Shown here piece by piece: positions 3,236 to 62,837 of a stretch of 64,000 nt of DNA. Under the pieces are notes generated by a model that made no database searches, was not told the DNA's origin, and saw nothing but the letters and a program-made list of their open reading frames with translations. Location of the stretch: positions 42,665,965 to 42,729,964 of the forward strand of contig CM026557.1 of assembly GCA_015143295.1 (NCBI GenBank). The letters run 5' to 3'. Origin of the DNA: Tetracentron sinense (taxonomy: Eukaryota > Streptophyta > Magnoliopsida > Trochodendrales > Trochodendraceae). Made by a program: the position numbers and the translations under genes. How positions within the stretch are numbered: the first letter of the stretch is position 1; the number at the start of each line of letters is the position of its first letter.

Positions 3236-3254
3236 TACGGGAAAAAATGGATCG

Positions 3255-3520: not shown

Positions 3521-3536
3521 ACAACACCAAAAAAAC

Positions 3537-4594: not shown

Positions 4595-4609
4595 CAGGTT
4601 CGAGTAGAA

Positions 4610-7667: not shown

Positions 7668-7675
7668 GATGGGAA

Positions 7676-10866: not shown

Positions 10867-11372
10867 ATAGAATCTTTTGACGTTAATTACGAAAACGAGG
10901 AATAAGCTAGTAAGTACACAAAACACACGGAATAAGTCTTTTAATTTAAGTTGAAAGATTCACCAAAGCTCTTTCGAGTTGCCGCTCATCTGAGAAGGAT
11001 AAGTTATGGGAAGCTCTCCGCAACAAAACAACATAAATGGTAGATTTAATGACAATCCTATAGCTAATATTACCTTATCCTTCATGTGATAGTGTTCGCC
11101 ATGACAACCGATGGCAAAGCACTTTCGAGTTGCCACTCATCTGAGAAGCATAAGTGAGGGGAAGCTCTCCTCAACAAAACAACATAAATGGTAGAATTGA
11201 TGACAACCCTATGGTTAATATTACCTTATCCTTCGTGTGATAGTATTTGGCATGCCAATGGGTCCTCTACACCCATCAAAGTGTTGGCAACATTACCTTA
11301 TCCTTATCTATTAGTCTTTATAATGTTCTTCATGTCCCTCGTTTGGCTTGAGCTACTTCTACACGAGGGTTT
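10867..11372. repeat. 151-bp tandem duplication in intron 8
   Basis: 'tttcgagttgccgctcatct' at about 10972 recurs at about 11123 as 'tttcgagttgccactcatct'. The copies share the following 'aagctctccncaacaaaaca' and 'tattaccttatccttc' blocks. No gene is seen. Confidence 0.7.
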
Positions 11373-11380
11373 GATTCGCT

Positions 11381-12498: not shown

Positions 12499-12601
12499 GA
12501 TTCGCTTCTTAAACTTCTTCTGCTTTATGTTTCGGTTTAGGCATGTTCACTGGATTCATTTCTTAAACTTCTTCTGCTTTATGTTTCGGTTTAGTCATGT
12601 C
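12494..12601. repeat. 54-bp direct duplication across the hAT end
   Basis: 'cactggattcgcttcttaaa' and 54 bp later 'cactggattcatttcttaaa' each precede 'cttcttctgctttatgtttc'. The duplicated unit includes the last five bases of the hAT-like element and its target duplication, so it arose after that insertion. Confidence 0.75.
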
Positions 12602-12914
12602 CCATAATGTACTTCAGGTCATATTCTTCCTTCTTTGAGTTCCTCCTCAATTATGAATTGTCTAGTATTAATAACATGGGAAACAAAGTACAATCATGCA
12701 CTCTATCCTACAACTGTAGGCTATAACCTTGTCATGATTTCAACATCAGTGTATTCTTAATAAGGAATTAAGGAGTATCTAATGTTAAGAACATGGGAAG
12801 TGTAAAACTAACATTCCTAAAAACATACGTTAATAGGTTTTTAACATAGAACATAATAGCATCATATATATCAGTGAATTTTATTGTGCAAGCTTTTCCA
12901 TAAAGATGGCTAAC
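12602..12914 (-). other. start of TERT intron 8, no further feature
   Basis: This lies immediately downstream of the exon 8 donor (GAG|GTTAGC). No next exon could be recognised in this stretch or farther left. Confidence 0.5.
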
Positions 12915-13053
12915 CTCAAACATGAAACCAACATTTCCATCTGCACTTCTATCCAAGGATGGAACAGCACAGTGCTTATCCAACAACTTCAAATGCTGGC
13001 AACCATGAGCTTTGCGTATGAGATTCTTAAGCAATTTAACAAGTGAGTGATAT
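12915..13053 (-). CDS. TERT: TERT exon 8 (RNA-binding domain)
   Basis: The acceptor ccccag precedes 13053 and the donor GAG|GTTAGC follows 12915. Its first base completes a leucine codon split after exon 7. It encodes 46 residues running from [14 protein letters not shown] through [15 protein letters not shown] to GFMFE. The LVKxLKxLI and LDKHCxVPxLD strings are hallmarks of the plant TERT RNA-binding domain. The exon ends in phase 0. The next expected segment (a VxFxWAVCRxxxP-type motif) was searched for leftward and not found. Confidence 0.93.
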
Positions 13054-16000
13054 CTGGGGACCCAAAAGCAAAGAATTAATAATAATAATAATAAAAGCAA
13101 ACAAAATAACACGGAAAATAATAACACTTAGACTTGAATCAAGGAATGGAATATCTGGTGAATGTATCCCTGAGGTAAATAGGCTACCTTTCCGGGTGCG
13201 AAACAAAATGCATGGACAAGAGTAACCAAGGTGGAAAAGCCAGTGGTTGTCCTATAATGTGTACAAAAGACCCGTACTAAACAATATGGAATTATTTTTA
13301 TAAGAAGCACCACATTCTTTTATAAGAAATAATAAACAGGGATCTAGAATGTATTAATAAGATTTGTGTGGGGTTAATGATAGAATTCTATTAGAGCAAA
13401 GGAAAGTAATTTTTATTTGTGGGCATATTTTATTAAGACGTGGTGCTGTCATCGTGGAAAGCAACACATGAACCAGACATATTAATCACAACAAAAAAGA
13501 CTTCCCTAGATTTGACCCAACACTGAGGAGTATAACCATCAGCTTCCATATAGTGGATATAGATCAAACAGTCTTGAACCATGCATCCAGATATTACCTG
13601 TGCCCAAGTATGCCCAACTCGCTCACAGAAGTAAAAAACAGTCACAAGTGAACCACAACAACAACTCAATTCTAGTACCCCATTAGAGTATAATCTCATA
13701 TTCATCCATCCAGTTTCTCTGTTTCTCATCGTATCTTTTCACCCACGTATCATGTCTTTCTCTCATCACTATCCTCGTTCAAGGAGCTCATGACTTGCAA
13801 GTTTAAACGCTGCCAGCTTTCTAGAGAAGAACGAATAGAATTCTCTACATGAAGAAGAAAATAAAGGTTAAAAGATAGAAAGTTGCCTGATGTATAGTTT
13901 AAATTTCCTAGATAGACATATAATGGGTGAATGTACACTTTTAAGGCTAAGATATGCATAGAGGGTTCTGTTAGTGTTTGCCGTGGGAGAATCTCAGCAA
14001 CGGAGCAGAGGAGATTGGAGTGTTGTGTCAACTACAATAGAACGAATTCTAGAGGTGTCTCGTGTAGCCCGAGGTCTGTTATGGATCACAAAGTTCTTAA
14101 ATGATGGGTCTTTCCATCATATCATGCAATATTAGAGGGTTTAGAGCGGGAAGTGAAAAGGATAGCCCTAAAGTAACCCATCGTGGCTTTCTTATCCCTG
14201 TCAATCATCTTTAGGTCCTTTATAACGGGCTTGAGTATCTACACTACCTTACGCTCCTGGTTCCATAATTGGTTATTGCAAATAATGTCCTACACCCTCT
14301 TCGCCTCACTGGCGCCGCTAATGCCACCTATCATTTGTAAATATCTTCTTCGGTCTTGTCTTCTATCCAACAACACTTTCAATGGCTATGAAGTTGGTGG
14401 AAAATCGAGTGATCCTTGGTGCCAAGGGGCGAGGGGGGGCCAAAGTATTATTCTGTATGTATAACTTTAAAATATATATATATATATCTAAATTTTCTAT
14501 ATAGTGCCCCCCCCCAAAAAAAAAAATTGTAAATATTTCTATATGTATAATATAAAGGGATTGATTCTTTATGTGTCACTTTAACCATAGTTAAGGAGTT
14601 AATTTTTTTAAATAAAAACCAAGTTAGATGTATAAATTCTAGGGGGTGAGTCTTAACCACTAGTTAATGGGTGTTAAAAGGGACATGTGTCAAGCAGGGG
14701 AGGCGCCTGCATTCCACTAATTAGCTCACCCTGCATTTGACTACTTCACATTTCATCTCCTTTAACTGTGGTTAGGCTTAACCAACTTAAAGTTATTATT
14801 TTTTTTCTAACAACAAAGATTAAATGGATGAACCCTAAAGGTGAGTGAATCTTAACCACAGTTAATGGGTATTCAAAAGGTGGGTAGGAACCAATGAAGG
14901 TCAGCATTTCATTACATAGTAGAAATGCGCGGTAAGTAAAGCATTTTGTTTATATAATGACTATCAAAAGGGTGGGCCCATGTTTTTCTTGTTACTGTGG
15001 ACCCCTTTTTGGAATGCAACATTAATTAATTTTATCACCACGATGGACCCACTACTCTAAATCCAATTAATTTTCTTGATATATGTACTTCGGCCCCCCC
15101 AAGGAAAAATTCATGGCTCCGCCCCTACTTAGCGCATAGTAGCTCCCCATTAGTGTGCTCTCTCATAAGACTCAAACCCCAATTGTGGTTGTATATATAA
15201 TTCATTACTTTTCGGGCTTGCTCAATCACGCTCTTCACCATCTGTGTCTCTCCAAAAATTTTCAACATCAGATCAATGATGTGAGACTCACACAGTGTCT
15301 AATACAGGTGCTCCCTCATCATCATTAACTATGAGACTCACACGGTGTCTAATACAGGTTCTCCCTCATCATCATTAAAAGCTCCTCAATTTTTTTAAAT
15401 TACGACTGGTTCTCTGTGACAACCTGCACCATGTACTCTCTAATCGCCTCTATCACATCATCAATTAACTGATGAAGGTATACATTATATTTAATAAAAT
15501 TGGAGGCATCGAAAATATTTGTGAGAAATTGTTTTCCATCACACTATACGAGAAAGTTAATCAGTTATAACCTCGTCGGCCGGGTCCAACCATCACACAT
15601 AATAGTCATCTTGTATGTATCCAAATTCTTAAAAGAATCGATGAAAGTGCAGATTTCAGCAATCTCCTCATCAAGCAATGAACATGTGATCTCGTAGCGA
15701 GTACATTCCTTTATGCCTGGCTCTGTTCTCTAAATCTCATCAATCAAGGTCTAATAGTGTGGAGACGTCGCGGTATGAGCTGGAATATGATTAAATATAA
15801 AAAAACTTCTCAATCATTCTCCTTAATTTCTTTGCTACATTCCCTCCAAACCACATATCCTTCAACTTCTTCTGAGATGCGTCATTCGCCCTCTACATAT
15901 AAGGGTCTATCTCCTCAATATACTCGAACATTTAACCTTATTCAATTTCAACTTTATCACATCTAAAACATACCGATCTAATACTCCGTATGTTATGTGT

Positions 16001-19000
16001 CCTCTGTAACCCACATTTCCTCCACCCTACTCGAACCCCTACCTCACGTTGTGAACCACCAAACCCATGCTTGGAAGCCTAAAATCACTGGATGCCCTCC
16101 CTCTCCCGTGCATCCTGCCTAGAACACCTCATGGCTGCATGTCCACCAACTCCATGCCTCTCGTAGGTGGGGGTCGTAGGTGGGGGGATTCGAGCAGGAG
16201 GGGAAGGTGGGTTACAATGGTCACAAATCATATGCTAGGCATTTGATAAGTATGTTCCAAAGGTGTTAAAGTCGAAGTCAAAGAAGGGTAAAGGCAAGCA
16301 TTGAGGAGATAGACCCTTACATGTACAGGGCGAATGGGGCATCGCTAAACAAGTTGAAGGATATATGGTCTGGAGGAAATGTAACAAAGAAATTGAAAAT
16401 AATGATTAGAAAGGTTTTTATATTTAATCATATCCCAGCTCATACCGCAACATCTCCAACTATTAGATCATCATATCACTATACTGTGAATATTAATTCA
16501 TCTTAATAATGTACCTATTTCTCATCATCAAAGCTTAGCCATACACAACATGGACGTGTAAGAAGGAAGTTCTCATCTATTTTTTTGGTGTAGTTTTTTT
16601 ATTAAAAAAAAAAAAAAATTTGGTGTAGAAGTTCTCATCTATAAGTTGTTGAAGTTATTTTTTCTCTTCATTAGGGTTGTCATTTAATTCAACAATTATT
16701 CATTATCTTCAGCTTTAATTGATGTTTCTCTCTATATAAAAATCTAGAAATTTATTTTAAATTATCTAAGATACTAAAAGTTAAAACTTTTTATTAAGCT
16801 TGCATTTTAAATTAATCATATTACTTTTTTAATAAGAACTATATAAAATATCAATTTTGAATTTCTTGTATCTCTATCTCAAGCAATTTAATGTTTTATC
16901 ACCTTCTGATCCCGTGCACCACACGGGGTCTCGGCTAGTGAATTTTCTAAACAAGATTGTCATCTTATTGCATACCCAATTTAATCTTTTGCTACTTGCC
17001 GTAGCAATAATATTTTTGGTAGACATTTATTCATGCAATTGGTTGAATCATTTTATAACTGATTTTTATCAACAGCAAATCATTGTTTCAACTTTCAAGA
17101 ACTTGGTAAAAGTTCTACCCTTGAAAAAAGTTCCATAGAAATTTTGTATATTCTTCTTCTATCTATTACATTATTTTTTACCCTCCCCTAAAATAAAATT
17201 TTAAATATATAAAAAATTGTAGATTGATGCTAACCAGCACAGAAAAACTTCCATTCATAAAAACCTCATCGCCATAGTCATGCAAAACCTTGTCTTAACT
17301 ATCTATGGTCAGGTGTGTGAACACTGGTTTCCAATGGCTTTTGAATCCTTTATTTCTACCTTGGTTCATGTGTTTTCTGGCCTTTCCCTTCTTTAAAGCC
17401 TTTGACCTGCCTCAGTGTGAACACTGGTTTCCAACGGCCTTTGAATCCTTTATTTCTACCTTGGTTCATGTGTTTTCTGGCCTTTCCCTTCTTTAAAGCC
17501 TTTGACCTGCCTCAGTGTGAACACTGGTTTACAACGGCCTTTGAATCCTTTATTTCTACCTCGGTTCATGTGCTTTCTGGCCTTTCCCTTCTTTAAAGCC
17601 TTTGACCTGCCTCAGTGAGCTCCTTCTTAAGGTCAATGACCTTATTTGCACATGACTGGAACCATCTCAAGTGACTCCTCCCTTTTGTTCACCTGCTGAA
17701 GCTATTCCTTTCTATATATAAAGCCTAGGACACTTAAATACTCTACAGTGATTAAAAAAACAAATAATTACAATAATAATAATAATGAAAATGACAAAGA
17801 CCAAACTATCGTCATCCTGTATTCTAGCCAAATGCTGACACGCAGTATGCAACTCCACAAAAGGCAGAATATATTACTTTTGCACCATCCAAAATGGTAG
17901 TATAGAGTTTGAGAGTGTACTTAAGCAAAATACTCAATATATATTGTTTTACTTACAGGCATGCAGATCCAATGAGACAAGAACCTCTTCTGTGGAAGCA
18001 TGGTATTGATTGAGCACTTAGACTTACATCAGGAAAACCAAAGATTTCCCTCATAAGAAGATTTGCACCAGCAAGATTGGGCTTTAAAGTGTTTAGTATG
18101 TCTGGTGATTATTAAGGTTGTGGCAAAAGAGATACAGCCCAATAGGACTCTTTCATAAATATAAAGCTCAAACTAGATATCATCAGGGAACAAAACTCCA
18201 ATCACTTTCTCACAAAGATGTATAACACAGAAATTTCCAGTCTGCAGAAAGCTTCAAAAAAGTTATAGAGAATGTGAAAGCACGTGTTGCTTTTTAATGA
18301 TTCTATGAAGTAGGATGATAGCATTGGTATAAATAATGGTATGCGGTAGAATGAACAAAGAGTGCATCAGCTAGATACGTATGCACTAAAATCTATAGAA
18401 ATAAGGGGACAAGGATACGATTTCTGGGAAAAACGGAGGAACAGCCAGACTTATAGAACATGAATTGTCTGTTAATCAGCGCCCCTTTGGCAACTTTTTG
18501 TGGTGCTTGGAATATCAAACAACAAAAGCACTGTGGTGCCATCTGCAGATAGGCCAAATATTCAAAATCATTAACAGGAAAATATAACAAAGAAACTGTC
18601 GATGTGATATTTGCAATATCTCATACATAGAATTAACTAGGCAATCCACATCATAAGCAATAATCACAAAAAATCAATTGGAAAGACGTTGTTTCACAAG
18701 TCCCGTCAAGAATAATATATTTTTAAGAATGCAATGACAAAATTCAAACTCACCATGCATTGACTAAAGGAAATGAAGCTCAACAAAACTGTAGATGAAC
18801 ACAGAAACCCGTGATCAAAAAGAGAATTTCACAAGGGAGGCAATTATTCGTGGATTTATAGGAATCTATGTGACTTGAACATGAACATGTATGCCTGTGT
18901 GAGACACGGATAGAAAGTGTCACGGAGACGCACCAAAATAAATCCAAAATGCCAACACTTGGTATTCCAGGTTTCTCCATAAATTATGAAATGTGTTTTA

Positions 19001-33327: not shown

Positions 33328-33372
<45 letters not shown>

Positions 33373-54300: not shown

Positions 54301-54372
54301 TTGTAGTTAAATAGTTTATATAGTATATCTTATGTGCACGCGAGCGTGGACACGAACACACAATGTACACGA

Positions 54373-54415
<43 letters not shown>

Positions 54416-57400
54416 AACTATAATCTTCCATCAACTTTTTGAATCTTTTTGCAAATTTTCTTATATTGTATTTATTTGTTAAAATGAGAGAGCATGAAGC
54501 TTTCTTGCAAGGCTTAAGCCTCACGCCTCAAGGTTTACGCCTCACGCATCTTGAGGTCCTAACGTCTCATTTCACGCCTTCACGTTTTAAGACATTGATT
54601 AAGAGGGAAAAGAAAGTACAACGCAAAGCCATGTGCTATGGGGCTCATAAGCAGATGAACCCAATAACTCCACCAAAGAATAAAATAAACAAGACAAGAT
54701 AGGATAAGGCACCGTTATCTTGCTGGTTGTCATCTTATAGCATCTCCTTGTGTTGCATTGTTTACCGAAATCCATGTGCTGGAAGTTCATTCTTCTCTAT
54801 TCACACATCTGGAGTTGAGAGGGACATTAGGGAGTTGGATAGACTAACTTTGAGCAGCAGGGTAGGGAAGTCAAATTATCAGCTGCCAGATCATTGCCAA
54901 ATTGTCCATAACCTTGCGGATAGCATGGGTGATTCCAGTAAGTTAGGGCATTTCCAGATTGTCCATAACCTTAAGGATAGTATGGGTAATTCCACGCCAC
55001 CATAAGTCTTCCTAAAATTTAACCCAATTACCCATCCCAATTCCCGACACTAAATCTGATAAACTAGGTGACCAACGAAATAATGTTAGATATGAATTTC
55101 CAAGGAGATTGGAGGTTGACTCAATCAGCCGTCCTAGAATTCCACCCATCAAGATCCATCCTATATTGTTTTTTATGACCAAGATTGCTCAAGAGGGAAC
55201 CTTCAAAGCCACTTACACATCAACACAATATTCCTTACTTTTTCTTTTTTTAATTGGTAAATCATAGTATAAATCACTATTTTCTTTACTTTGATCCTGC
55301 CAATGTTCACTCCACCCTTTGGATATAGAAACCATCTCCCAACTAACCAAGTGGTCTATCTTGACCCCTCGATTATCCCAAAGGACGTTCCTCTGAACCT
55401 GCTAGTTTTTAATAAATTTATACGGAGCTTTAAAGAGGGACCAAAAGTAATTTAGCAAATTAAACAAAGTAGAATTGATCAGAGTAATTCTGTCCCCCAG
55501 CCAAACATAATTCATGTTCCAAATAAAGAGACATTTAGTAGTCTTTTCCATAATCGGGCCCCAATGTTCAAGAGATTTAGGATTTGCACCAATGGAAAAA
55601 CAAGGCACCTCAACAGTCACAGTGAAATTCTACAACCCAAAATGTTATTGAAATCCGAGATCTCGTCAAACCTAAGGTTAATACCAACTAAACAGCTTTC
55701 ATCCATGTTAATCTTGAGCCCTGGAATAATCTCAAAGCATTTTAAGCCATATTTCAACTTTCAAGTTACATATCAGACCAACATCAGCCTCACAATATAG
55801 AAGGTTGGCATAGTCAAATTGAAGATGGCATATATTCACCTTACCCTTTATAAGATGCCGAGATTCAGCTAATTCTGCTCAAATGTCACCCACAATCGTG
55901 CAGATAAAAAGAGGAGGGGGGGGGGGGAGGGGGGCTGCCGCCTTAAAGTGTACCTCTGTATTAAAGGGAAAAACTGAATCCACTAATCATTATAAAATTA
56001 TTGCACCAAGGACACATTCCTCCTCTTGGATCCAAGCCTCTTTGATCAAGGAAATAATCTACATAAAATCTCAATCCAACCTATCATAGGCTTTTTTCTA
56101 GTTCCAACTTTACCTCCATTCCTTTTCACTCGTCCTTGAATCTCTCTTTAATGCACTCAAAGGTGATAAGAATTTCATCCAATATTTTCCTTTCTTTAAT
56201 GAAAGCTCCCTGAGATGAGGAAATCATCAAATCCAAGACATCTCCAAACCTCTTAGCCAGATTTTGAAAAGGTTCTTATTCATCCCAAAAACCAAACTTA
56301 TGGGGCCTGAACACGATATGCACAATACTGTTAGGATACAAAAAAACATATATGGATACGTTGCAGGGTATCTTTATAACACTCAAACTGAGCGTATGAA
56401 CTTCACAATAAAACTCATTTTTTCATTTTGTCCCTCAAAATCTTTTTTTTTTTTTTTTAAATCAAATTGAGACTATGAACAGAACAAAAAATTAAAAAAA
56501 CACTCATTTCGACATTTTGCTATTCAAAAACCTTTATGAACATCTTTTATAAAAATAAAAACTCTATGGTTTGCCGCATCCGATTCATACCTATTCATTG
56601 TCATTGCTGTAAGGTATGTCTTTTTCAATTTGTTTATTTGTGTGATTATCTATTTTAATTTTTAATAAAATGTTGATATATGTAATATCGGGGGTATACT
56701 TGTAAAAGGGCATATATGTAATGTTCTCTCTTTATATAATATGCTAGTAGGGTTCTCTAATCCCTAACTAAGCAATTTATCCTAACCTCTCTTTCTCCTC
56801 TCTTCTCTCTTTTCTCTTCTCTAAACCCTAAATCCTCCAAACCCTTTCTCCAACTTGGTATCAGAGCTACATTAAAAGAAGAAGATCGTCATTTAAAGCC
56901 GTAACAACAACAAAAGGAAGAAAGAGCTAGCTGCCACGTTTTTAGTCATACGGTTGTCTCAATCCGTATGGCCTAGGTCTTATATTTTTGGGTTTTGGGT
57001 TCTTTAAAGATATATTTTTCAAAGATCTTTATTTTAGAGGATTTTTGAATCATATTTCATGAGATTTAGTTACATATTGATGAGTTATGATGATTTGAAG
57101 AAAAAATACAAAAAAATTTTTTAAAAAAAATATTGTTTTGGTTCAGATTTTTTACCGCTTGAATAAGTTGTTGCTTCCACTATTTATTGGTCGTGGTTAG
57201 ACCCTTTTTTTTAGAGGAATATCTTGAACCTTTTTTTTTTTTTTTGGATGAGATTTGAAAAAGTTTTGGATGAGATTTGAAAAAGTTGTGATGATTTTAC
57301 AGCCCAACTTCACAACCGTTTTTTTGCTAAAAAATGGTTTTTATACCCTATTTGCTTATAACAACAACTTAAGTCATCTCTTTGGTAATCTTAATACCAT

Positions 57401-60400
57401 TAGATCTTTTGTTGTTGATATTTTTGATCGATTGATTGTTTGTTCCTTGAGTTTCTACTATGGCGGCTAAAGTTCTTGCTCCTTGAGTTTCATCTTAATG
57501 TTTATATTGGGGGTCGCTCTAAGATACGGTATCTTGATGGTAAGACCCCACAGCCGAAGACGGGTATTCCCAAAATTGCTAAGTGAAAGGCAAAGAATTG
57601 CAGTATTTTGGGTTGGTTGTTCAATTCCATGGAGTCTCAGATTGCAGGAGATTGTCATGAACTTTGCGAGGCTCTTATTCAGACTTATGCCCTAGTAGAG
57701 AATGATGCTCGGATTTATCAACTTCCTCGTGAGATCTCACTTTCAGCAATGAGATATGTCTATTTCAGATTATTTTGGGGCTCTTCAGCGTCGTTGGGAA
57801 GAATTGAATCATTATGAGCCTCTTTCTAAATTATCTGCTATTTCCGCCAAGATTATAACGATGTGAATTGAGCGTCACCGCATTTATGATTTCTTAGGAG
57901 GTTTTCAGGCCGAATTCAAGCTGTTGCATACTCAGATTCATGTCACATCTCCTTTGTCATCTCTTCGATCTGTGTACTCCACTGTATTTGGTGAGGAACA
58001 CCACCGGGCTATTATATCTTTGAGCACCACTCCTATGCCCCTTCCAGGTCATACCGCCTTTGCTACTAATTTTTGTCCTGCTGCTGGACGTGGTAGGGGG
58101 GTTGTTGTGAGAGGGGTTGTCGTGGTCGTGGCAGACCTACTACTCCTTATAGTCATTGTGGTATAGTGGAACACGATCGTGATCATTGTTACAGTTTGTA
58201 TGGCGATCCTGAGGGTTACCAGCCTCGTCCTTTTGCTCACTTTACTAAGACTCCTGTTGTTGATCCTCAGTCCTCAGTTGTTACCAGTGATCCTCTAGAG
58301 TCCATAAGAGCCCAGGTTGCTGAAATGATCTGAGCTGAGTTCCGTCTGCAGAGTGATTCTCCTTATACTGCTACTTCATCTACCACATGTATCCATGCTC
58401 CCTCGGCCTATGCCGCTATTACATCGTATTCTTCCCCTAGCTGGATTATTGATATCGGAGCTACTGGTTATATGACAGGTGACTGGTGAGTCACAGGGTT
58501 ATTCCATTTATTCACCTTCATTGCCTACTGTCAAGATTCGCTTGCCTGATGGTTCTTTTACTCCGGTCTCAGGAGTAGGACACATTCCTATGTCTCCATC
58601 TCTCTCTTTATCTCATATGTTACATGTTCCTCATCTATCTTCTAACCTTCTTTCAGTGAGTAGTCTTACTACCAAACTTAACCGTTGTGCTATGTTTTAT
58701 CTTTCTCATAGTCTCTTTTAGGACCTGACTACGAGGAAGATTGTTGGTAGAGGAGTGGAAAGAAGTGGACTTTACTACCTGTGGATGCTATTGATAATAC
58801 TTATCGTTTATGACATACCAAGCTTGGACATATTGGATCTAAGACTTCATATTCTTTGATTCTTACTTTTAGTAAACTTTGTTTTTCATCTACTTTTCAA
58901 TGTGATACTTGTGAGTTTACTAAATATGTTCGTACTGTTTATCCTTCTCGGATGCATAGATTTCGTTCTATTTTTCAGTTAGTTCACTCGGATGTTTGGA
59001 GACCATCTCCTATTCCCTCAAGTGATGGCTTTTGTTATTATGTTACATTTATTGATGATTGGATCTAAGACTTCATATTCTTTGATTCTTACTTTTAGTA
59101 AACTTTGTTTTTCATCTACTTTTTAATGTGATACTTGTGAATTTACTAAATATGTTCGTACTGTTTATCCTTCTCGGATGCATAGATTTCGTTCTATTTT
59201 TCAGTTAGTTCACTCGGATGTTTGGAGACCATCTCCTATTCCCTCAAGTGATGGCTTTTGTTATTATGTTCCTTTTATTGATAATTACACTCAAGTTACT
59301 TGGGTGTGCCTTTTTAAGTCTACGGATGAGGTGTTCTCTAAATTTCAGGAATTTCATGCTATGATTGTTACCCAGTTTGGTAGTCTTATTAAGGCTCTTC
59401 GTTCTGAATCTTCTGATAATGGCGGTGAGTATCTCTCTGCACCTTTTGTCTAGTTTCTTCAAACTCATGAGATTGCACATGAGCTTACATGTCCTTATAC
59501 GCCTCGACAAAATGGTGTTATTGGGCGCAAGAATTGTCATTTAGTTGGTGTCACTCATTCTTTGTTGCGAGGCATACAGGTGTCTAAGTCTTATTGGTCC
59601 GTGGCTCTTCTCACTGCATGTTTTCTCATCAATCGAACTCCTTCTTACATTCTTGATAGCCTCTCACTATATTTGCTTATTTGCCCTCAGGTTCCTATTT
59701 TTCTCATTGAGCCACGAGTGTTTGGTTGTACTTGCTTTGTCCAGAATCTTCGCCCCAGTCGTCAGAAATTGGATGATAAGGTCATTCCTCATTCAATGAG
59801 TCTTTGTTGGCTATCAGTGTTACGGCCCTCAATCTCGTCATTTCTTTGTCTCTCTGGATGTTACTTTTTTCGAGACAGTCTCTTATTTCTCTCCTGCTCC
59901 TAAGGCGTCACCTGTCTCTGTGCCTTCACCTACTGTTTCTCCTGTCTCTATGTCTTTACTTTTTGCAGGGGATCTCCCACAGCAGAAGGAGTTTCTCACA
60001 TACTTTCGCCGCCAACCACCAGGTTCCTCCTCCGATGTGCCTCTACCACTGTCTTCTCCGCAGGCCACTACTCGAGGTACTTCGTTACCCTCTGTTACTC
60101 TTGTTCATTCTCTTGCTATTGTCTTAGATTCTGTGATTCATGAGCGGACAAAGCACATTGAGGTTGATATTCACTTTCTTCATGAGAAAGTCCAGGATTG
60201 TTCTTTATCTCTTCAATTGTTTCGTCTTCTCAACAACTTGCTGATATCTTCACCAAGCCGGTTGGCCCTGCTATTCTTCAGGATATTACTGTCAAACTGG
60301 GCATTCTTAATGTTATGCTCCACCTTGAGGGGGAGTGTTATTGGGGGTATACTTGTAAAATGGCATATATGTAAAGTTCTCTCTTTATATAATATGCTAG

Positions 60401-60819
60401 TAGGGTTCTCTAATTCCTAACTAAGCAATTTACCCTAACCTCTCTTTTTCCTCTCTTCTCTCTTTTCTCTTCTCTAAACCCTAAATCCTCAAAACCCTTT
60501 CTCCAACTTAAAGAATATAACATGTATTATAAATTATAGATTTACAGAATATCATGTTTGATCCATGGATCTAAAACTCCTTTTTGCAAGCTTTTGAGCA
60601 ATTTTTATGTAAGTTAAAAAAAATCAATCTTTTGTGATTATTTCTTAAAATGAAGCATATAATATGCATAATAGATAATGAATCAATGGATTTTATTAGA
60701 TTTTTGAGTAATTGTTCTGGTATTTTTTGGGAACAATAAAAAAAAACAAATTTTTTCAAACAAAATATGGAGAATCTATGCATTATCTGCATCATCCGTA
60801 GATTAATCTCAATTCTGAA

Positions 60820-60871
<52 letters not shown>

Positions 60872-62837
60872 CTAATAGATCTCATAAAATATAATTTATT
60901 TTAATCAGAACTATTTATCTGAAAATTATTTTATTTTATTTTTTCACTAATAATAATCATATAAGATCAAATAAAATATGAGTGATTAGTTTATAGATGA
61001 TTTACCATATCCATCTACTAATCTTAGTTTTTGGAGAAAATCAGAAAATATATTTTAGTTTTTTGTAAGTTCAACGTTTTGACATATTTATCAAGAAACA
61101 AACTTTAGCTTATTTTACCTTTAAGCTAATCATATAAGATCCAATGAAACATATGTCATTAGTCTATTGAAGATCTTCATCTCTCTCTCTCTCGTAAGAA
61201 GGTGGAACTGGGTGCTACTCAAATGAGGCAGCGTGCCTCAATTTAGTGGGATCATGTCCAATCCATACGATAGAGAACTTTTTCAAGCGGGGTGAAAACT
61301 TCAATTTGAGGGGGAGAAATAACATAATGTTCATTCAAAAAATAAATTCTATTGTGGGTGATGGAAATGTGGAACGATATCAACGACTTCTATAAGGTCT
61401 CCAGCCACAACAATAAATAATAGGTGTCAAAATAATAAGAGGAATATACCAATCAAAAAAATTGTAGAATACAACACTGCTGGAGCAGATTTGAATAAGA
61501 GATCGATACCAGAATAAATACATATGAATAAAGGGAATTTTATAAGCTCAATATCCGTGACAAAAAAAAAATGGTAAAATAGTAAGCACTTCGTAACATT
61601 GCTAGAATTAGTGTAAATTTAAAGCTCCTTCCCAATCCTTATATGTACGTGATATAAAGAAGCGTATTGCATAGACATGCATGAAGAGTAAGAGGACAGG
61701 CAAACTAAATTCATAGTCAAAGTATAACAATGTATGTAGTGGAAACCTTCCAAAAAATGTATGTAGTGGAAAATCCACATCTGTGTGCACATGAGATAAA
61801 TGCATTAAGTAAAGCTTCATTTTGATGACAATAGCAATAGAATGCCATGACAATGAAGTGCATACTTGCCTTGTTATAACCATTGCATATTACATTAGAA
61901 GACATGGGTTGCTCACATATAATCATTTCTATAATCCTTCTGACGATCTGAAAACATAATTAGAAAAATAGAGGTAAGATGTAAGAAATCACTTCACCTA
62001 TTGATATTCTCTTTAAATCTGTCTTTCTCCAGATAGCAAGTACGAGGCAGCATCCCATCATGGGTGATGGTGATTTGCCCCCTTGTGCATTATCAATCCG
62101 GACCATCCAATCGATACAGAACCTTTTATGCATCATAATCCCAATAAAGCCATTTATCAATCGATCCAAACCATCCAATCCACAAACTTCTATCATAAAC
62201 TCTCACATGGTTTTGCTGATCAATGAATCCAATTACTCGGATGGTTTAGAATTACGAATTTGGGATATGATTCATCAAAGATCAGCTCCATCAATTGAAC
62301 AGATATGGAGCATTAGAATTTAGATACATCCACCGAAACAAGGCCATCCATGATCTATACATCAATCAAGAAATTCATGACTAGGCAGTCCCTTTTGGTT
62401 GGAAAGCATCCTAAACTTGTTCATGATTGATGGCATTGTGGTGATTCGGCTACAAAGTGCAATAATTTCTATACTTTGCCCTAGAAAATGGAAACGATGA
62501 CAAAAAAAACAGGATTGAGAAATCTGACCTGTTGCTGTGACCATCGACGATCGGGGTAGAATTCCAAGAGCTCCGGTGCATTATCGGACACAACGACGAA
62601 GCATCGAATGAGGAGCTTGCGATAATCGGGAGGATCGTCTGGCCTGAGAAGAAAGGCCATGGCATCGGCGCCGCTGCAACCAATACAGCGCCGGCCCTTG
62701 CACCGGCATTCCGGCGCTGAAGACGGTGGCGGAGGCAGCAATGATACGATTGTGTCCGCTAATGTGCGCGTGCGGTTGCGGTACAACCTCCATAGAACCT
62801 CGGGGACTCTTTGTCTCTGTTTCTTCCTCATAGTCAT
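12915..62837 (-). CDS. TERT: telomerase reverse transcriptase, N-terminal half (eight exons)
   Basis: TERT is the catalytic protein of telomerase; it copies the telomerase RNA template onto chromosome ends in the nucleus. The spliced coding sequence is 62837-62529, 61947-61870, 50505-50440, 50331-50166, 21054-20549, 18542-18419, 18101-17957 and 13053-12915. These total 1533 nt, 511 codons, and every junction keeps frame. Residues 1 to about 200 are the TEN domain with plant-TERT landmarks [11 protein letters not shown] and [15 protein letters not shown], then [13 protein letters not shown] and FTSIFLP. Exon 5 is a basic linker ([15 protein letters not shown]). Exons 6-8 enter the RNA-binding domain ([19 protein letters not shown]). 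Plant TERT is usually over 1100 residues, so the T motif, reverse-transcriptase motifs and C-terminal extension lie off the left edge if the gene is complete. No stop or frameshift is seen in the exons. Introns are enlarged by transposons. Confidence 0.93.
13054..14050. other. TERT intron 7, left part, no gene seen
   Basis: Several minus-strand open frames (13128-13313, 13433-13729, 13750-14031) show no recognisable TERT or transposon sequence and lack consistent splice phases. I treat the stretch as intronic. Confidence 0.5.
14423..15126. mobile_element. GC-rich-ended element interrupting the hAT transposase
   Basis: Left end is AGGGGCGAGGGGGGGCC and right end, inverted, is AGGGGCGGAGCCATG. 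These resemble the ends of 51124-51759 and 22754-22951. Transposase-like sequence lies on both sides, which supports an insertion. No target duplication was found. Two foldback repeats lie inside. Confidence 0.6.
14545..14935. repeat. foldback MITE-like repeats, copies C and B
   Basis: Two adjacent copies of the family seen at 2850-3105. The first spans about 14545-14700 and the second about 14710-14935. The second has arms 'tttaactgtggttaggctta' and 'gaatcttaaccacagttaat', nearly perfect inverted repeats. Both are nested in the GC-rich-ended element. Confidence 0.7.
15745..16480. repeat. inverted duplication of hAT transposase segment
   Basis: The plus-strand stretch at about 16295-16480 (gaggagatagacccttacat, then aagttgaaggatatatgg and cagctcataccgc) is the reverse complement, with substitutions, of 15757-15930. 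The arms are about 180 bp and are separated by roughly 365 bp. Confidence 0.8.
16490..17315. other. TERT intron 7, AT-rich, no gene seen
   Basis: Contains a poly-A run near 16604 flanked by duplicated 'tttggtgtag' words. Otherwise there is nothing recognisable. Confidence 0.4.
17316..17615. repeat. 100-bp tandem repeat, three copies
   Basis: Units starting 'tgtgaacactggtttccaa' begin at 17316, 17416 and 17516 and end with 'tttgacctgcctcag'. They are about 97% alike by eye. The repeat creates overlapping open frames at 17305-17496 and 17402-17596 that are artefacts. It lies 340 bp downstream of the TERT exon 7 donor. Confidence 0.9.
17957..18101 (-). CDS. TERT: TERT exon 7 (RNA-binding domain)
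   Basis: The acceptor tcaccag ends at 18102 and the donor CCT|GTAAGT follows 17957. The first two bases complete a histidine codon begun in exon 6. It encodes [11 protein letters not shown], then [10 protein letters not shown], then [18 protein letters not shown]. The IFGxxxV and PCxHxxGSCLxGSxCL strings are characteristic of plant TERT. The exon ends two bases into the leucine codon completed by exon 8. Confidence 0.93.
18419..18542 (-). CDS. TERT: TERT exon 6 (linker to RNA-binding domain)
   Basis: The acceptor atctgcag precedes 18542 and the donor AAATC|GTATCC follows 18419. It starts in phase 0 after exon 5 and encodes 41 codons plus one base. The sequence runs [14 protein letters not shown], then [13 protein letters not shown], then SVFPRN. 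The CxCCLxxQ and INRxxMFY strings match plant TERT. Joining to exon 7 gives FPRNHILNTLKP without a break. Intron 6 is only 317 bp. Confidence 0.92.
18555..20548. other. TERT intron 5 with a 73-bp duplication
   Basis: The stretch contains a 73-bp direct duplication: 'cgcatgatacaatag' at 19531 and 19604, each followed by 'gataatacgtctgaggatga'. A partial third unit ends near 19757. A poly-T tract with 'attttggtcggtaaag' near 19391-19430 resembles the 3' tail of a plant LINE on the minus strand. A (TG)n tract lies at 20341-20362. No exon is seen. Confidence 0.55.
20549..21054 (-). CDS. TERT: TERT exon 5 (basic linker)
   Basis: The acceptor tttgtcag precedes 21054; two bases complete a glycine codon begun in exon 4. 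The donor CTG|GTAAGC follows 20549. It encodes 168 further codons in phase 0. The sequence opens with [12 protein letters not shown] and later has [28 protein letters not shown] and [14 protein letters not shown]. This is the poorly conserved linker between the TEN and RNA-binding domains, here with two basic clusters that could act as nuclear localisation signals. The open frame extends upstream into the intron (to about 21082), but the splice phase fixes the start at 21054. Confidence 0.9.
21341..21735. mobile_element. hAT-like MITE, 395 bp, near TERT exon 5
   Basis: Ends are CATAGTTATCAAG and, inverted, CATAGTTGTTGGG. Flanking repeats are CTTTATAC (21333-21340) and GTTTATAC (21736-21743), one mismatch. 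The interior is rich in 'gaagcgag' words. The ends resemble those of the element at 4147-10858. It lies about 290 bp before the exon 5 acceptor. Confidence 0.7.
21744..22138. other. TERT intron 4, no gene seen
   Basis: Unremarkable AT-rich sequence between the MITE and the LINE tail. Confidence 0.4.
22139..22368 (-). mobile_element. 3' tail of an L1-like LINE (separated by hAT insertion)
   Basis: Read on the minus strand this is LINE-like 3' untranslated sequence ending near an A-rich tract (cctataaaagaaaag). It is continuous with the LINE reverse-transcriptase remnant at 29065-31035 once the hAT element and one CCCTAAA copy are removed. Confidence 0.6.
22754..22951. mobile_element. small GC-rich-ended element
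   Basis: Ends are AGGGGCAGAGCCGGGG and, inverted, AGGGGCGGAGCCAGGATT, a terminal inverted repeat of about 15 bp. A further similar end (AGGGGCGGAACCACATGG) lies at 22662, so two copies may be nested. No target duplication was found. The C/G runs create a spurious open frame. Confidence 0.6.
23155..23525 (-). mobile_element. possible LINE 3' tail fragment
   Basis: The stretch begins 'ttttttattgataatcaag' and contains 'gaaattacagcaatatac', similar to the LINE tail near 22280 (gaaaattacagcaagaag). There is no coding sequence. The assignment is weak. Confidence 0.35.
23527..23705. repeat. GGGCC-rich hAT-like left end
   Basis: It starts with AGGGGTGAATGGGCCGGGC and has many 'gggcc' and 'ggccc' words (cggcccta, aagcccgagcc). 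The AGGGGTG start resembles the GCTCG-rich family terminus. The opposite end is not found. Confidence 0.45.
24125..25136. mobile_element. GCTCG-rich hAT-like element, complete, 1012 bp
   Basis: Ends are TAGGGGTG and CACCCCTA, a perfect inverted repeat of 8 bp. Exact 8-bp target duplications GAGGAATC lie at 24117-24124 and 25137-25144. Both subterminal regions carry many GAGCTCG, GGCTCGTTAAA and GAGCTTGAACA motifs in opposite orientations. The interior has no transposase. This copy defines the family also seen at 2577, 31930 and 63801. Confidence 0.9.
25300..25720. repeat. partial LTR related to the solo LTR at 26065-27877
   Basis: It shares ordered blocks with the last third of the solo LTR: 'gaaatcctcaattgagtaag', then 'aaatccctaaactggtggaa', then 'attgtggaatctagatagtt', ending CTACATCA where the other ends CTGCATCA. 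hAT transposase sequence resumes right after it. The 5' part of the LTR is not seen. Confidence 0.65.
25721..26059 (+). pseudogene. hAT transposase fragment (central)
   Basis: The frame reads [19 protein letters not shown], the C-x2-H (CAAH) motif region of DUF659-type plant hAT transposases, followed by [14 protein letters not shown] and LMRLHALEN. It continues with decayed sequence ending near a TEWRA-like string at about 25995. Stops are present, including one shortly after 25900. Upstream N-terminal BED sequence is not recognised. It continues at 27883 after the solo LTR. Confidence 0.8.
26065..27877 (+). mobile_element. solo LTR with plastid DNA insertion
   Basis: It starts TGATGCAG and ends CTGCATCA, an 8-bp terminal inverted repeat. 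Exact 5-bp duplications AATAT lie at 26060-26064 and 27878-27882. hAT transposase sequence flanks both sides. It has no internal coding region, so it is a solo LTR of about 1.35 kb plus about 460 bp of plastid rps12. It includes a promoter-like TTTATAAATA at about 26361. The family is unknown. Confidence 0.8.
27290..27752 (+). pseudogene. rps12: plastid rps12 fragment transferred to the nucleus (NUPT)
   Basis: Chloroplast rps12 encodes ribosomal protein S12 and is trans-spliced. This insert holds the 3' half of the trans-spliced group II intron, including a domain V hairpin at 27374-27408 (GAGCCGT...ACGGTTCT). Exon 2 follows at about 27447-27676, reading [19 protein letters not shown], then GFEITAY, then VVLVRG. 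The start of intron 2 (ttgtatcatttgatga, then gtatggctaacc) completes it. Base deletions after VRGR shift the frame, and substitutions occur, so it is a decayed nuclear copy. The two edges match the boundary of homology between the two LTR copies. Confidence 0.92.
27883..28702 (+). pseudogene. hAT transposase C-terminal part
   Basis: It resumes with [14 protein letters not shown] near 27892, then [26 protein letters not shown] (about 28015) and [13 protein letters not shown]. After an intron-like gap it gives [20 protein letters not shown] and NWSAFEEQI (28357-28455), the hATC dimerisation region. The end is acidic ([15 protein letters not shown] at about 28557). In-frame stops at 28048, 28455 and 28510, plus shifts, make it non-functional. 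The domain order and the 8-bp-type flanks support a hAT element. Confidence 0.85.
28703..29064 (+). other. 3' untranslated part and right end of the hAT element
   Basis: AT-rich sequence with a poly-T tract near 28768. The last 90 bp (gaatttttcagaacctaac, then ctcgaaccccaacttcg) match the termini of this family on the opposite strand. Confidence 0.6.
29072..31035 (-). pseudogene. L1-like LINE reverse transcriptase remnant
   Basis: Minus-strand frames read, from right to left, a reverse transcriptase of the plant L1 type. Near 30830-30780 it gives [17 protein letters not shown], near 30710 [11 protein letters not shown], and near 30500 a decayed ADDTL box. At 30225-29950 it gives [24 protein letters not shown] and [10 protein letters not shown], ending in [10 protein letters not shown]. 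These are classic L1 ORF2 motifs. Stops and shifts are frequent. The 3' end is displaced to 22139-22368 by the hAT element. Confidence 0.82.
31072..31866 (+). pseudogene. RTE-like LINE 3' fragment
   Basis: The plus strand gives [42 protein letters not shown] and [13 protein letters not shown], the reverse-transcriptase end typical of RTE-clade plant LINEs. It continues with [10 protein letters not shown] and a conserved DLTKLMTFN region, then DHTNWDKAL and a (GAT)n tail. RTE elements commonly end in simple repeats. An internal repeat ('atgctttatggag', at 31399 and 31449) and several stops are visible. Confidence 0.8.
31930..33132. mobile_element. GCTCG-rich hAT-like element, 1203 bp
   Basis: Starts TAGGGTTGCA and ends GCCCCA, with CCTCCAGA (31922-31929) and CCTCCAAA (33133-33140) as flanking repeats, one mismatch. 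Subterminal GAGCTCG and GAGCTTG motifs are in opposite orientation at the two ends. The middle (32170-32950) is GC-richer, with open frames at 32251-32493 and 32426-32608 of unknown origin. They could be captured host sequence. Confidence 0.7.
33205..33312 (-). pseudogene. short RTE-like LINE tail
   Basis: Read on the minus strand it gives [15 protein letters not shown], matching the end of the RTE fragment at 31751-31830 on the plus strand. Confidence 0.6.
33328..33371. repeat. (AT)n microsatellite
   Basis: About 20 uninterrupted AT units. Confidence 0.95.
33981..34976. mobile_element. GATACG-rich inverted-repeat element, 996 bp
   Basis: Ends are ATGGTTCAAAATATCGG and, inverted, ATGGTTTAAAATTTCGAG. 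Both subterminal regions carry 'cgtatcg' and 'gatacg' words. Flanks 'ttgcttgag' and 'gcgctcgag' match at six of nine positions, compatible with a decayed 9-bp duplication. It has no coding region. Confidence 0.7.
36108..36759 (-). repeat. 3' LTR of the chromodomain element
   Basis: 652 bp, terminal TGATG...CATCA. It has an extra 21-bp duplication (ggagtcacacc-type) compared with the other LTR, and is rich in 'tttctagaa' motifs. Confidence 0.9.
36690..41486 (-). pseudogene. chromodomain gypsy gag-pol, two nonsense codons
   Basis: One continuous reading frame runs from a start at 41486 (MSTRSGQPY) to a stop at 36690, broken only by TAA at 40934-40932 and TGA at 38462-38460, with no frameshift. 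Domains in order are Gag with a CCHC zinc knuckle ([14 protein letters not shown], about 40376) and protease ([12 protein letters not shown], about 40100). Reverse transcriptase follows with YFDDILIYS (about 39050), then RNase H ([16 protein letters not shown], about 38600). Integrase has an H2C2 zinc site near 38040-37930 and catalytic-core strings MDFVLGLP and [12 protein letters not shown]-terminal chromodomain ([18 protein letters not shown], about 36900) ends the protein. The chromodomain can direct insertion to heterochromatin. The last 70 bases overlap the 3' LTR. Only two point nonsense changes separate it from an open frame. Confidence 0.93.
41536..42169 (-). repeat. 5' LTR of the chromodomain element
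   Basis: 634 bp, TGATG...CATCA, nearly identical to 36108-36759. The primer-binding site lies just inside it at the left. Confidence 0.92.
42175..43403. other. right part of the large solo LTR
   Basis: It carries four 'ctcgctcgagcga'-type motifs and ends in 'ggtggcgactcc' then AGCGCTCACA. No coding region is recognised. Confidence 0.6.
44429..48640 (+). pseudogene. copia gag-pol, frameshifted
   Basis: Gag starts near 44429 ([11 protein letters not shown]) and contains [13 protein letters not shown] and the UBN2-type [13 protein letters not shown]. It shifts frame near 44770, then continues to a decayed zinc knuckle near 45260. Protease is poorly preserved. GAG-pre-integrase and integrase are at 45900-46600 ([33 protein letters not shown]). 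Reverse transcriptase is at 47211-47880 ([20 protein letters not shown], then [14 protein letters not shown] and [12 protein letters not shown]). RNase H is at 48253-48600 ([32 protein letters not shown]). Shifts near 47680, 47980 and 48225 and stops such as 47806 make it non-functional. Confidence 0.88.
48669..49076 (+). repeat. 3' LTR of the copia element with internal duplication
   Basis: It starts TGCTGAATAAGG. The block 'cttatatactaatagtagac' occurs twice, about 133 bp apart. The 5' LTR has it once. Each block sits in a hairpin: 'tctactattagta' followed by 'tactaatagtaga'. Confidence 0.85.
49082..50165. other. TERT intron 4, right part, no gene seen
   Basis: AT-rich sequence between the copia element and TERT exon 4. 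An open frame at 49395-49706 has no recognisable domain. Confidence 0.45.
50166..50331 (-). CDS. TERT: TERT exon 4 (TEN domain)
   Basis: The acceptor atgtgcag precedes 50331 and the donor TTTG|GTAATC follows 50166. It encodes 55 codons plus one base: [20 protein letters not shown], then [12 protein letters not shown], ending SAVQF. The VMVYLL, TSIFLPL and GxxHxQVxGPP strings are conserved in plant TERT. The open frame continues into the intron, but only this donor gives the phase required by exon 5. Confidence 0.93.
50440..50505 (-). CDS. TERT: TERT exon 3 (TEN domain, 66 bp)
   Basis: The acceptor ctaacag precedes 50505 and the donor AGAGG|GTAAGT follows 50440. It encodes 22 codons in phase 0: [10 protein letters not shown], then [12 protein letters not shown]. 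The SSPxxxLLTSSxWxxLLxR string is diagnostic for plant TERT. It is too short to stand out as an open frame. The intron to exon 4 is only 108 bp. Confidence 0.93.
50506..50876. other. TERT intron 2, left end, no feature seen
   Basis: Intronic sequence directly upstream of exon 3. Nothing beyond the acceptor site is recognised. Confidence 0.5.
50877..51105. repeat. 80-bp tandem repeat, three copies
   Basis: Units begin 'ttctagccaaaattatcag' at 50877, 50957 and 51037 and include 'gtgatctctcatttgactat'. The copies differ at only a few positions, and the third is cut at about 70 bp. The array lies about 370 bp upstream of the exon 3 acceptor. Confidence 0.92.
51124..51759. mobile_element. GC-rich-ended element with 9-bp target duplication, 636 bp
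   Basis: Exact 9-bp repeats GAGCAGGAG flank it (51115-51123, 51760-51768). Ends are CAAGAGTGGAGCCAAG and, inverted, AGGGGCGGAGCCAGGG. The interior consists of four or five imperfect ~90-bp units with 'cagctgcccc' and 'ctatgcc-tgttaaat'. A 9-bp duplication is typical of Mutator-like elements, but the short terminal repeat makes the class uncertain. Confidence 0.85.
51769..53716. other. TERT intron 2, unassigned, several short open frames
   Basis: A plus-strand run of open sequence (52497-52849, then pieces to 53698) looks like decayed coding sequence and could be a LINE ORF1, but I recognise no domain. Around 51950-52110 the minus strand resembles a LINE 3' end. Both ideas are weak. Confidence 0.3.
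53725..54597. mobile_element. hAT-like non-autonomous element, 873 bp
   Basis: Exact 8-bp duplications ATTAAGAG flank it (53717-53724, 54598-54605). Ends are CAGTGTTTTAAAAAGCG and, inverted, CAATGTCTTAAAACGTG. Subterminal regions are rich in 'gaggctc' and 'gcctca' words. An (ATAC)n/(AT)n microsatellite sits at 54374-54414. Confidence 0.88.
54606..55240. other. TERT intron 2, no gene seen
   Basis: Contains a ~50-bp direct duplication: 'attgtccataaccttgcgga' at 54901 and 'attgtccataaccttaagga' at 54958, each followed by 'tagcatgggtgattcc'-like sequence. Confidence 0.5.
55245..56290 (-). pseudogene. L1-like LINE reverse transcriptase fragment
   Basis: Minus-strand frames read [13 protein letters not shown] near 56030, then ICTIVGDI and a decayed DDTL region ([14 protein letters not shown] near 55780). 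Farther on come [33 protein letters not shown] and [10 protein letters not shown] (55620-55402), followed by [11 protein letters not shown]. These fit the C-terminal half of plant L1 ORF2. A T-rich tract near 55245 could be the copied poly-A end. It is heavily shifted and 5' truncated. Confidence 0.75.
56291..56680. other. TERT intron 2, no gene seen
   Basis: AT-rich sequence with a poly-T run near 56443. Confidence 0.4.
57490..60330 (+). pseudogene. copia gag, protease, integrase and RNase H end; RT deleted
   Basis: Gag-like sequence spans 57497-58180 ([36 protein letters not shown], then [10 protein letters not shown]). Protease near 58440 reads [12 protein letters not shown], with the catalytic DSG changed to DIG. 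Pre-integrase and integrase follow at 58600-59790 ([25 protein letters not shown]). A 226-bp tandem duplication lies at 58835-59286. The frame then jumps from near 60000 to the very end of RNase H ([25 protein letters not shown]), so reverse transcriptase is deleted. Numerous stops are present. Confidence 0.85.
58835..59286 (+). repeat. 226-bp tandem duplication within copia integrase
   Basis: 'ggatctaagacttcatattc' occurs at 58835 and 59061. The two units are nearly identical through 'gttattatgttncntttatt'. The junction shares ATTGGATCT at both sides. Confidence 0.92.
60515..61869. other. TERT intron 2, right part, with (AT)n
   Basis: A long (AT)n tract lies at 60823-60868. The rest is AT-rich with no recognisable gene. 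The sequence next to 61869 holds the GC donor of intron 2. Confidence 0.5.
61870..61947 (-). CDS. TERT: TERT exon 2 (TEN domain)
   Basis: The acceptor gttttcag precedes 61947. It encodes 26 codons in phase 0: [13 protein letters not shown], then NVICNGYNK. The IVxRIIE and NVxCxGY strings are typical of plant TERT right after the exon 1 WSQ. The exon must end AACAAG at 61870 to join exon 3 in frame, and the intron then begins GCAAGT, a GC donor. The alternative GT four bases farther would shift the frame of exon 3. Confidence 0.9.
61948..62528. other. TERT intron 1 (581 bp)
   Basis: Bounded by CAG|GTCAGA and gttttcag|ATC. It contains repeated 'accatccaatc' words (62101, 62167) but no recognised element. 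Confidence 0.8.
62529..62837 (-). CDS. TERT: TERT exon 1 (start codon, TEN domain)
   Basis: The start at 62837 gives [19 protein letters not shown]; a second in-frame ATG at 62831 could also serve. The exon encodes 103 codons and includes a proline run, then [11 protein letters not shown] and [19 protein letters not shown]. It ends [10 protein letters not shown] at the donor CAACAG|GTCAGA. The [13 protein letters not shown] opening, the C-rich motif and the RxDDPxxYRKLL motif fit the start of plant TERT. Overlapping frames at 62581-62907 are shadows. Confidence 0.95.

What the first reader, a model, noticed from the sequence alone, without database searches (positions are those of the whole stretch)
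12915..62837. TERT gene stretched over more than 50 kb by transposon-filled introns
Eight small exons (1533 nt) join in frame across 50 kb, with introns of 11.4 kb, 29.1 kb and at least 12.9 kb made largely of nested transposons. In well-studied plants such as Arabidopsis this gene is compact. Long intronic transposon load on the telomerase gene raises questions about its splicing, heterochromatin marks and expression. The exon phases are fully consistent, so the gene looks selected for, at least in this half.
Basis: partly seen in the sequence, partly recalled or inferred. Interest (0 to 1): 0.75.

Follow-up and report, generated by a model that had tools for sequence, protein, structure and literature searches.

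The report
Plant telomerase gene with huge introns
This is the complete, apparently intact telomerase gene of a plant (probably the tree Tetracentron sinense), stretched to 81 kb because mobile DNA piled up inside its introns; the gene and its 12-exon layout are ordinary, and only the length is unusual.

Summary
Eight minus-strand exons totalling 1533 nt join in frame at the stated coordinates and encode the N-terminal part of a plant TERT. Using the window's own genome I followed the gene past the window edge: 12 exons, a 3918-nt CDS, 1305 codons with no internal stop, and a coding span of 81,221 bp (window 62837 down to -18383). Pfam and PDB searches point to telomerase; the three catalytic aspartates are present. 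Three probes of the 1.16-Gb genome hit only this locus. Twelve exons is the reported plant norm. Five introns hold 94% of the intron length. About 47% of intron sequence was assigned to repeats or transposons (Gypsy, Copia-like, hAT-like), an incomplete count; a nested insertion is shown in intron 8, and a decayed plastid rps12 fragment lies in intron 4. Ten introns are GT-AG; the 11.4-kb intron 2 is GC-AG. Assembly statistics match a published Tetracentron sinense assembly. Transposon-stretched introns are known in plants (MSH1 reaches 806 kb), so this is a new member of a known kind. Expression, splicing and chromatin were not testable.

The parts
62529..62837 (-). TERT exon 1 (ATG at 62837, second in-frame ATG at 62831)
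   Evidence: 55 of 102 residues identical to a recalled Arabidopsis TERT N-terminus
61870..61947 (-). TERT exon 2
50506..61869 (-). intron 2, 11,364 bp, GC-AG (AACAAG|GCAAGT donor)
   Evidence: the GT 4 nt further in would break the frame
56686..60509 (+). retrotransposon remnant between 171-bp direct repeats (95.9%) in intron 2; only sub-cut-off matches to a retroviral-polymerase SH3 domain, called Copia-like by eye
50440..50505 (-). TERT exon 3
50166..50331 (-). TERT exon 4
21055..50165 (-). intron 4, 29,111 bp
43560..49072 (+). decayed Copia element in intron 4, antisense to TERT (terminal repeat pieces 87-88% alike; gag, RVT_2)
36108..42169 (-). Gypsy-type LTR retrotransposon with chromodomain in intron 4, same sense as TERT; 5-bp target duplication TGTTT (36103-36107, 42170-42174); LTR K2P 0.034; gag, protease, RT, RNase H, integrase, chromodomain
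33981..34977 (.). about 1-kb dispersed repeat with inverted ends, hAT-like, in intron 4
27300..27752 (+). decayed plastid-type DNA fragment (group II intron domain V plus rps12 exon) in intron 4, absent from two other genomic copies of the repeat around it
24201..27299 (.). dispersed repeats 24201-25105 and 26064-27299 in intron 4
20549..21054 (-). TERT exon 5 (linker)
18419..18542 (-). TERT exon 6
17957..18101 (-). TERT exon 7
15131..15729 (-). weak DUF659 relic in intron 7, below the Pfam cut-off (link of DUF659 with hAT transposases recalled)
12915..13053 (-). TERT exon 8, last exon in the window
7000..10861 (.). repeat mosaic in intron 8: repeat A (7000-7615 and 8379-9859) split by an insert about 7673-8377; repeat B 9860-10861
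4249..6971 (+). Gypsy-type remnant in intron 8 between direct repeats (86.6%), RNase H and integrase pieces over cut-off
1..12914 (-). window part of intron 8 (14,660 bp in all; exons 9-12 lie outside the window at -1746..-3011, -15622..-16193, -17544..-17816, -18110..-18383)

Best explanation
This is the intact TERT gene of a seed plant, most likely Tetracentron sinense, and the only TERT locus found there. It encodes the catalytic subunit of telomerase in the usual plant 12-exon form. The introns were enlarged step by step by retrotransposons, DNA transposons and a scrap of plastid DNA inserting at different times, while coding exons and splice sites were kept. Shown: exons, frame, splice dinucleotides, domains, catalytic residues, one locus, repeat content. 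Inferred: that the 81-kb primary transcript is made and spliced into working telomerase mRNA, and that silenced intronic elements are read through as described for IBM2-type pathways in Arabidopsis and rice.
For: Twelve exons give 1305 codons without an internal stop, with AG acceptors at 11 of 11 introns and donors GT at 10 and GC at 1 of 11 (edges chosen by eye). Domains: RBD, TERT_C and RVT_1 over their cut-offs. All 14 PDB sequences matched are TERT, best 4.3e-64 for 7qxa_A (human, as I recall). Catalytic Asp 856, 1042, 1043 and a GSSVF motif are present (GSSVF named as well conserved in plant TERTs, PMC7916837 passage). PF12009 and PF21399 each have 1 match in the genome and the N-terminal probe has 5, all exons of this gene. 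Repeats. No N in the 81,221 bp. Plants: 12 exons highly conserved (PMC7658794 passage).
Against: No transcript, methylation or activity data. TEN reaches only 18.2 bits against a cut-off of 25. No relative's genome was available, so purifying selection was not measured. Another published assembly of the species differs in size and chromosome number (PMC8810787 passages), so local assembly errors cannot be wholly excluded. Diverged TERT fragments below E 0.001 would not have been listed.
Confidence: 0.9

Rival explanations
1. The locus is a decaying or silenced TERT: transposon load has stopped production of full-length mRNA, and the open frame is a relic too young to have broken.
For: About 47% of the intron sequence is repeat or transposon, including a young Gypsy-type element of the same sense. 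Retrotransposon damage to a TERT copy is reported in Nicotiana sylvestris, where an Ogre element is linked with the split TERT_D (PMC7916837 passages).
Against: No second locus was found to take over; 3918 nt with no stop or frameshift. Several insertions look older (LTR K2P 0.076-0.14), which leaves time for decay that is not seen.
Confidence: 0.05
2. The extreme intron lengths are partly an assembly artefact (repeat-mediated misjoin or false expansion).
For: Repeats with many copies lie in the introns; the chromosome count of the matching published assembly is disputed (PMC8810787 passages).
Against: All 12 exons are in order, on one strand, with no N in the span. The intron 4 Gypsy-type element has a 5-bp target duplication on both sides.
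Confidence: 0.05
3. The long introns are functional regulators: intron 8 retention or early polyadenylation makes a short TERT like Arabidopsis TERT V(I8), and the size of intron 8 tunes how often.
For: A. thaliana makes a variant in intron 8 that binds POT1a more efficiently than the full length (PMC7658794 passage). Here intron 8 is 14.7 kb, read-through adds 48 residues before a stop, and an AATAAA lies at 12885.
Against: Ten AATAAA/AATGAA/AATAAT words occur in the first 1.5 kb of intron 8, so one is no evidence; the nearest lies before the read-through stop; no RNA was examined. Introns 2, 4 and 9 are also swollen.
Confidence: 0.12

Closest known systems
Plant TERT genes (12 exons)
   Same: 12 exons, RBD, RT and C-terminal domains, one locus, GSSVF motif
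   Different: coding span 81.2 kb; four introns over 10 kb
MSH1 of green plants (PMC10487979)
   Same: mostly single-copy conserved gene, CDS nearly constant, introns expanded by TEs; up to 805,861 bp, longest intron 101,025 bp; 73-74 kb in Nelumbo nucifera
   Different: another gene; TERT is not mentioned in the parts I read (abstract, section 3.1)
Rice genes with intronic heterochromatin (PMC7145194)
   Same: TE-bearing long introns inside transcribed genes, regulated through OsIBM2
   Different: chromatin state here unknown
Nicotiana sylvestris TERT_D with Ogre element (PMC7916837)
   Same: Gypsy retrotransposon at a TERT locus
   Different: that copy is split from its last-exon part; this one is intact

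Membership tests
Telomerase reverse transcriptase (TERT) | Telomerase RNA-binding domain with T motif | tested here: met
   PF12009, 125.6 bits against cut-off 25; FYVTETE at 685, aligned with FYVTET of 7qxa_A; motif name recalled
Telomerase reverse transcriptase (TERT) | RT domain with catalytic Asp triad | tested here: met
   PF00078 35.9 bits against 29.6; D856, D1042, D1043, aligned with the same residues of 7qxa_A
Telomerase reverse transcriptase (TERT) | C-terminal extension | tested here: met
   PF21399 77.1 bits against 27
Telomerase reverse transcriptase (TERT) | TEN domain | tested here: inconclusive
   PF11474 18.2 bits, below cut-off 25; residues 136-186 align with 7qxa_A
Telomerase reverse transcriptase (TERT) | Telomerase activity with telomerase RNA | not testable with these tools
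   needs a biochemical assay
Plant 12-exon TERT gene | 12 coding exons | tested here: met
   plant norm in PMC7658794 (passage)
Plant 12-exon TERT gene | usually a single copy | tested here: met
   one locus at E up to 0.001, every first-look candidate scored (4, 8 and 7)
TE-expanded long plant gene | conserved CDS with introns above 10 kb rich in TEs | tested here: met
   4 of 11 introns above 10 kb; about 47% of intron sequence assigned to repeats or TEs
TE-expanded long plant gene | intronic heterochromatin, read through by IBM2-type factors | not testable with these tools
   no methylation or RNA data

The most novel reading that the evidence does not exclude
Telomerase dosage in this long-lived tree is set by intron load: silenced transposons in introns 2, 4, 8 and 9 make full-length TERT mRNA depend on an IBM2/EDM2-type read-through pathway, with early ends in intron 8 giving a V(I8)-like short TERT. 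That would link transposon silencing directly to telomere maintenance.
Probability: 0.1. Interest if true: 0.65.

Novelty: new member of a known kind. Interest (0 to 1): 0.3.

Why it matters
It gives a clear case of a conserved gene, found at one locus only, that keeps its coding sequence while introns make up 95% of its length. It offers a natural test of whether transposon silencing inside introns limits telomerase expression. It also warns that gene predictors with intron-length limits may split or miss TERT in such genomes: the annotation of the matching published assembly reports a mean intron of 283 bp (PMC7709256 section). Whether TERT is missed there was not checked.

Tried and rejected
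A scan of minus-strand frames with recalled TERT motifs gave only one telling hit, in exon 1, since most motif-rich exons lie outside the window. PDB search with exon 1 and a few bases of intron 1 gave 0 matches. A longer exon 4, ending before the GT at 50125, was first assumed (it went into the query) and dropped because its phase does not fit exon 5; the GT at 50165 does. A GT donor 4 nt inside intron 2 was rejected because it breaks the frame. The K2P of 0.36 computed for the intron 4 Copia ends was set aside because the ends hold a partial tandem repeat and the ranges did not match; the BLAST pieces are 87-88% alike. Six paper searches for a plant TERT with long introns listed none by title and start of abstract, but not every hit was listed (20 of 256, 20 of 76, 5 of 5, 5 of 2,882, 2 of 2, 9 of 9), and one search covered 2024 onwards only; subscription papers are mostly not held. 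Genome-wide copy number for intron 2, for the plastid fragment and for the joined flanks of the intron 4 Gypsy did not complete. Neighbouring genes were not worked out: open frames were listed for L006 and L004 only, and I recognised no host gene. The RNA-family scan of the window gave only the plastid-type group II intron pieces.

Full report
Observation. On the minus strand they run 62837-62529, 61947-61870, 50505-50440, 50331-50166, 21054-20549, 18542-18419, 18101-17957 and 13053-12915, and they sum to exactly 1533 nt with phases that fit. The first exon matches a recalled (not fetched) Arabidopsis TERT N-terminus with 55 of 102 residues identical, E 1e-29 in this 64-kb search.

The rest of the gene. 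The window lies in a held genome of 1,161,278,568 bases at C7:42665965-42729964. The RNA-binding domain of telomerase matches 1.9-2.4 kb past the window's low end. I fetched 50 kb on that side and 10 kb on the other and found exons 9-12 at window coordinates -1746..-3011, -15622..-16193, -17544..-17816 and -18110..-18383. The spliced CDS is 3918 nt: 1305 codons and one terminal stop. The coding span is 81,221 bp with no N.

Introns are 581, 11364, 108, 29111, 2006, 317, 4903, 14660, 12610, 1350 and 293 bp. Five of the 11 (introns 2, 4, 7, 8, 9) hold 94% of the intron length. All 11 acceptors are AG; 10 donors are GT and intron 2 is GC in a good consensus (AACAAG|GCAAGT). I chose the edges by eye for frame, homology and consensus, and none is backed by RNA; exon 10 could also begin 3 nt later. 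GC-AG is about 1.2% of plant introns, and non-canonical sites are reported as likelier in very long introns (PMC6310983 passages).

Identity. Pfam: Telomerase_RBD 1.9e-36, TERT_C 2e-21, RVT_1 8.3e-9, TEN below its cut-off. PDB: 14 distinct sequences matched at E up to 0.001, all named telomerase reverse transcriptase, best 7qxa_A at 4.3e-64 (human, as I recall). Asp 856, 1042 and 1043 stand in motifs A and C. The GSSVF motif said to be well conserved in plant TERTs (PMC7916837 passage) is at 820. Twelve exons is the reported plant norm (PMC7658794 passage), with 13 in Solanaceae and a predicted 10 in Populus (PMC7916837 passages).

Copy number. Three probes over the whole genome (PF12009, PF21399 and a 388-aa N-terminal query) hit only this locus: 1, 1 and 5 matches, the five being exons 1-5 of this gene. 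The 388-aa query carried a wrongly long exon 4 end. The first look found 4, 7 and 8 candidates and all were scored; weaker relics would not be listed.

Species. Contigs C1-C24 run from 64.56 down to 33.09 Mb, sum to 1,076,009,138 bases (92.66% of the total) and give an N50 of 45.45 Mb (C7). Of the other 1,455 contigs I saw the length of C25 and C26 only (22 and 42 kb). The published Tetracentron sinense assembly has 24 chromosomes of 33-65 Mb, 1.07 Gb, 92.24% of 1.17 Gb, N50 45 Mb (PMC7709256 passages). I take this as a strong but indirect identification. A second assembly of that species has 908 Mb and 19 chromosome-size scaffolds and disputes the count of 24 (PMC8810787 passages).

What fills the introns. 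Names such as Gypsy, Copia and hAT rest on Pfam domains and recalled hallmarks. In intron 4 there is a Gypsy-type element with chromodomain, 36108-42169, in the sense of TERT, with a 5-bp target duplication TGTTT on both sides and LTRs differing by K2P 0.034. That is about 1.3 My at 1.3e-8 or 2.4 My at 7e-9; both rates are recalled and uncertain for a tree. A 601-bp piece of it has 40 scored matches including itself, 93-100% alike, out of 159 candidates. Intron 4 also holds a decayed antisense Copia at 43560-49072 and a 1-kb repeat with inverted ends at 33981-34977. In intron 9 a pair of long direct repeats spans -15111..-4866 (K2P 0.076 and 0.10), with an integrase-like frame on the + strand named by eye and not searched. 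A Gypsy-type remnant lies in intron 8. A repeat-flanked remnant with sub-cut-off domain matches lies in intron 2. A DUF659 trace in intron 7 is below cut-off.

An insertion within a repeat is direct in intron 8: copies elsewhere, for example on C1:17227350-17228555, have 7000-7615 next to 8379 onwards, while about 7673-8377 occurs apart from repeat A on C10, C18 and C20. On C20 that piece lies next to a match to repeat B, so insert and B may be kin. A piece of plastid-type DNA sits at about 27300-27752: the domain V of a group II intron, and a broken rps12 frame whose best PDB match is chloroplast S12. Two genomic copies of the surrounding repeat, on C20 and C22, have only 43 and 41 bp there.

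Counting these stretches whole, 36,397 of 77,303 intron bases (47%) are assigned. Of these, 1,028 bases (introns 7 and 8) rest on sub-cut-off domain matches alone and 3,824 (intron 2) on a short repeat pair plus such matches. The count is incomplete, since intron 2 could not be searched against the genome and the genome searches scored 39 of 20,673 and 40 of 11,024 candidates; one search did not even list the query's own place.

Is it exceptional in its genome? As a small control I read the spacing of domain pieces in other replication genes. Three PF00136 (DNA polymerase B) genes and two PF00521 (topoisomerase) genes have matched spans of 1.9-3.5 kb with 16 gaps between neighbouring pieces, all of 79-2001 bp. 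A gap may hold unmatched exons, and the rest of each gene was not looked at. A further PF00521 gene on C7 has gaps of 620 and 6770 bp. One PF00136 match (C6) and all four PF05192 matches were single pieces and were left out. So TERT is well above these few genes, though a long gap occurs elsewhere too. The published mean intron is 283 bp (PMC7709256 section), which depends on the gene predictor.

Mechanism. Most likely insertions accumulated in the introns of a gene that selection keeps; the differing repeat divergences suggest several separate times. [quoted passage not shown] Whether that holds here is inference. A bolder reading, that intron 8 promotes a short isoform like Arabidopsis TERT V(I8) (PMC7658794 passage), is only compatible with the sequence: 48 read-through residues and an AATAAA at 12885, one of ten such words in the first 1.5 kb.

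Novelty. MSH1, another conserved and mostly single-copy plant gene, ranges from 3,234 to 805,861 bp with TE-filled introns, 73-74 kb in Nelumbo (PMC10487979 abstract and section 3.1). A TE-stretched TERT is thus a new member of a known kind. None of the papers listed in six searches (listings partly capped) describes, by title and start of abstract, a plant TERT of this length.

Noticed in passing
27300-27752: Decayed plastid-type rps12 fragment with group II intron domain V, inserted in a dispersed repeat inside TERT intron 4.
   Followed up: partly
61869-61861: GC-AG donor on the 11.4-kb intron 2, with a frame-breaking GT 4 nt inside; a possible alternative-splicing site.
   Followed up: partly
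L007/L005, window coordinates -48067..-36803: Young pair of direct repeats (K2P 0.023) enclosing about 11 kb in the 3' flank of TERT.
   Followed up: no
17315-17617; 50877-51105; 58832-59286: Tandem arrays of 100 bp x 3, 80 bp x 2.9 and 226 bp x 2 in introns 7 and 2.
   Followed up: no
L006:7992-8309 (-): LINE-like reverse transcriptase frame upstream of TERT; named by eye, not searched.
   Followed up: no
33981-34977 and -28319..-27312: About 1-kb repeat with inverted ends CATGGTT...AACCATG; the flank copy has an 8-bp target duplication TTTGCATT (read by eye), as recalled for hAT elements.
   Followed up: partly
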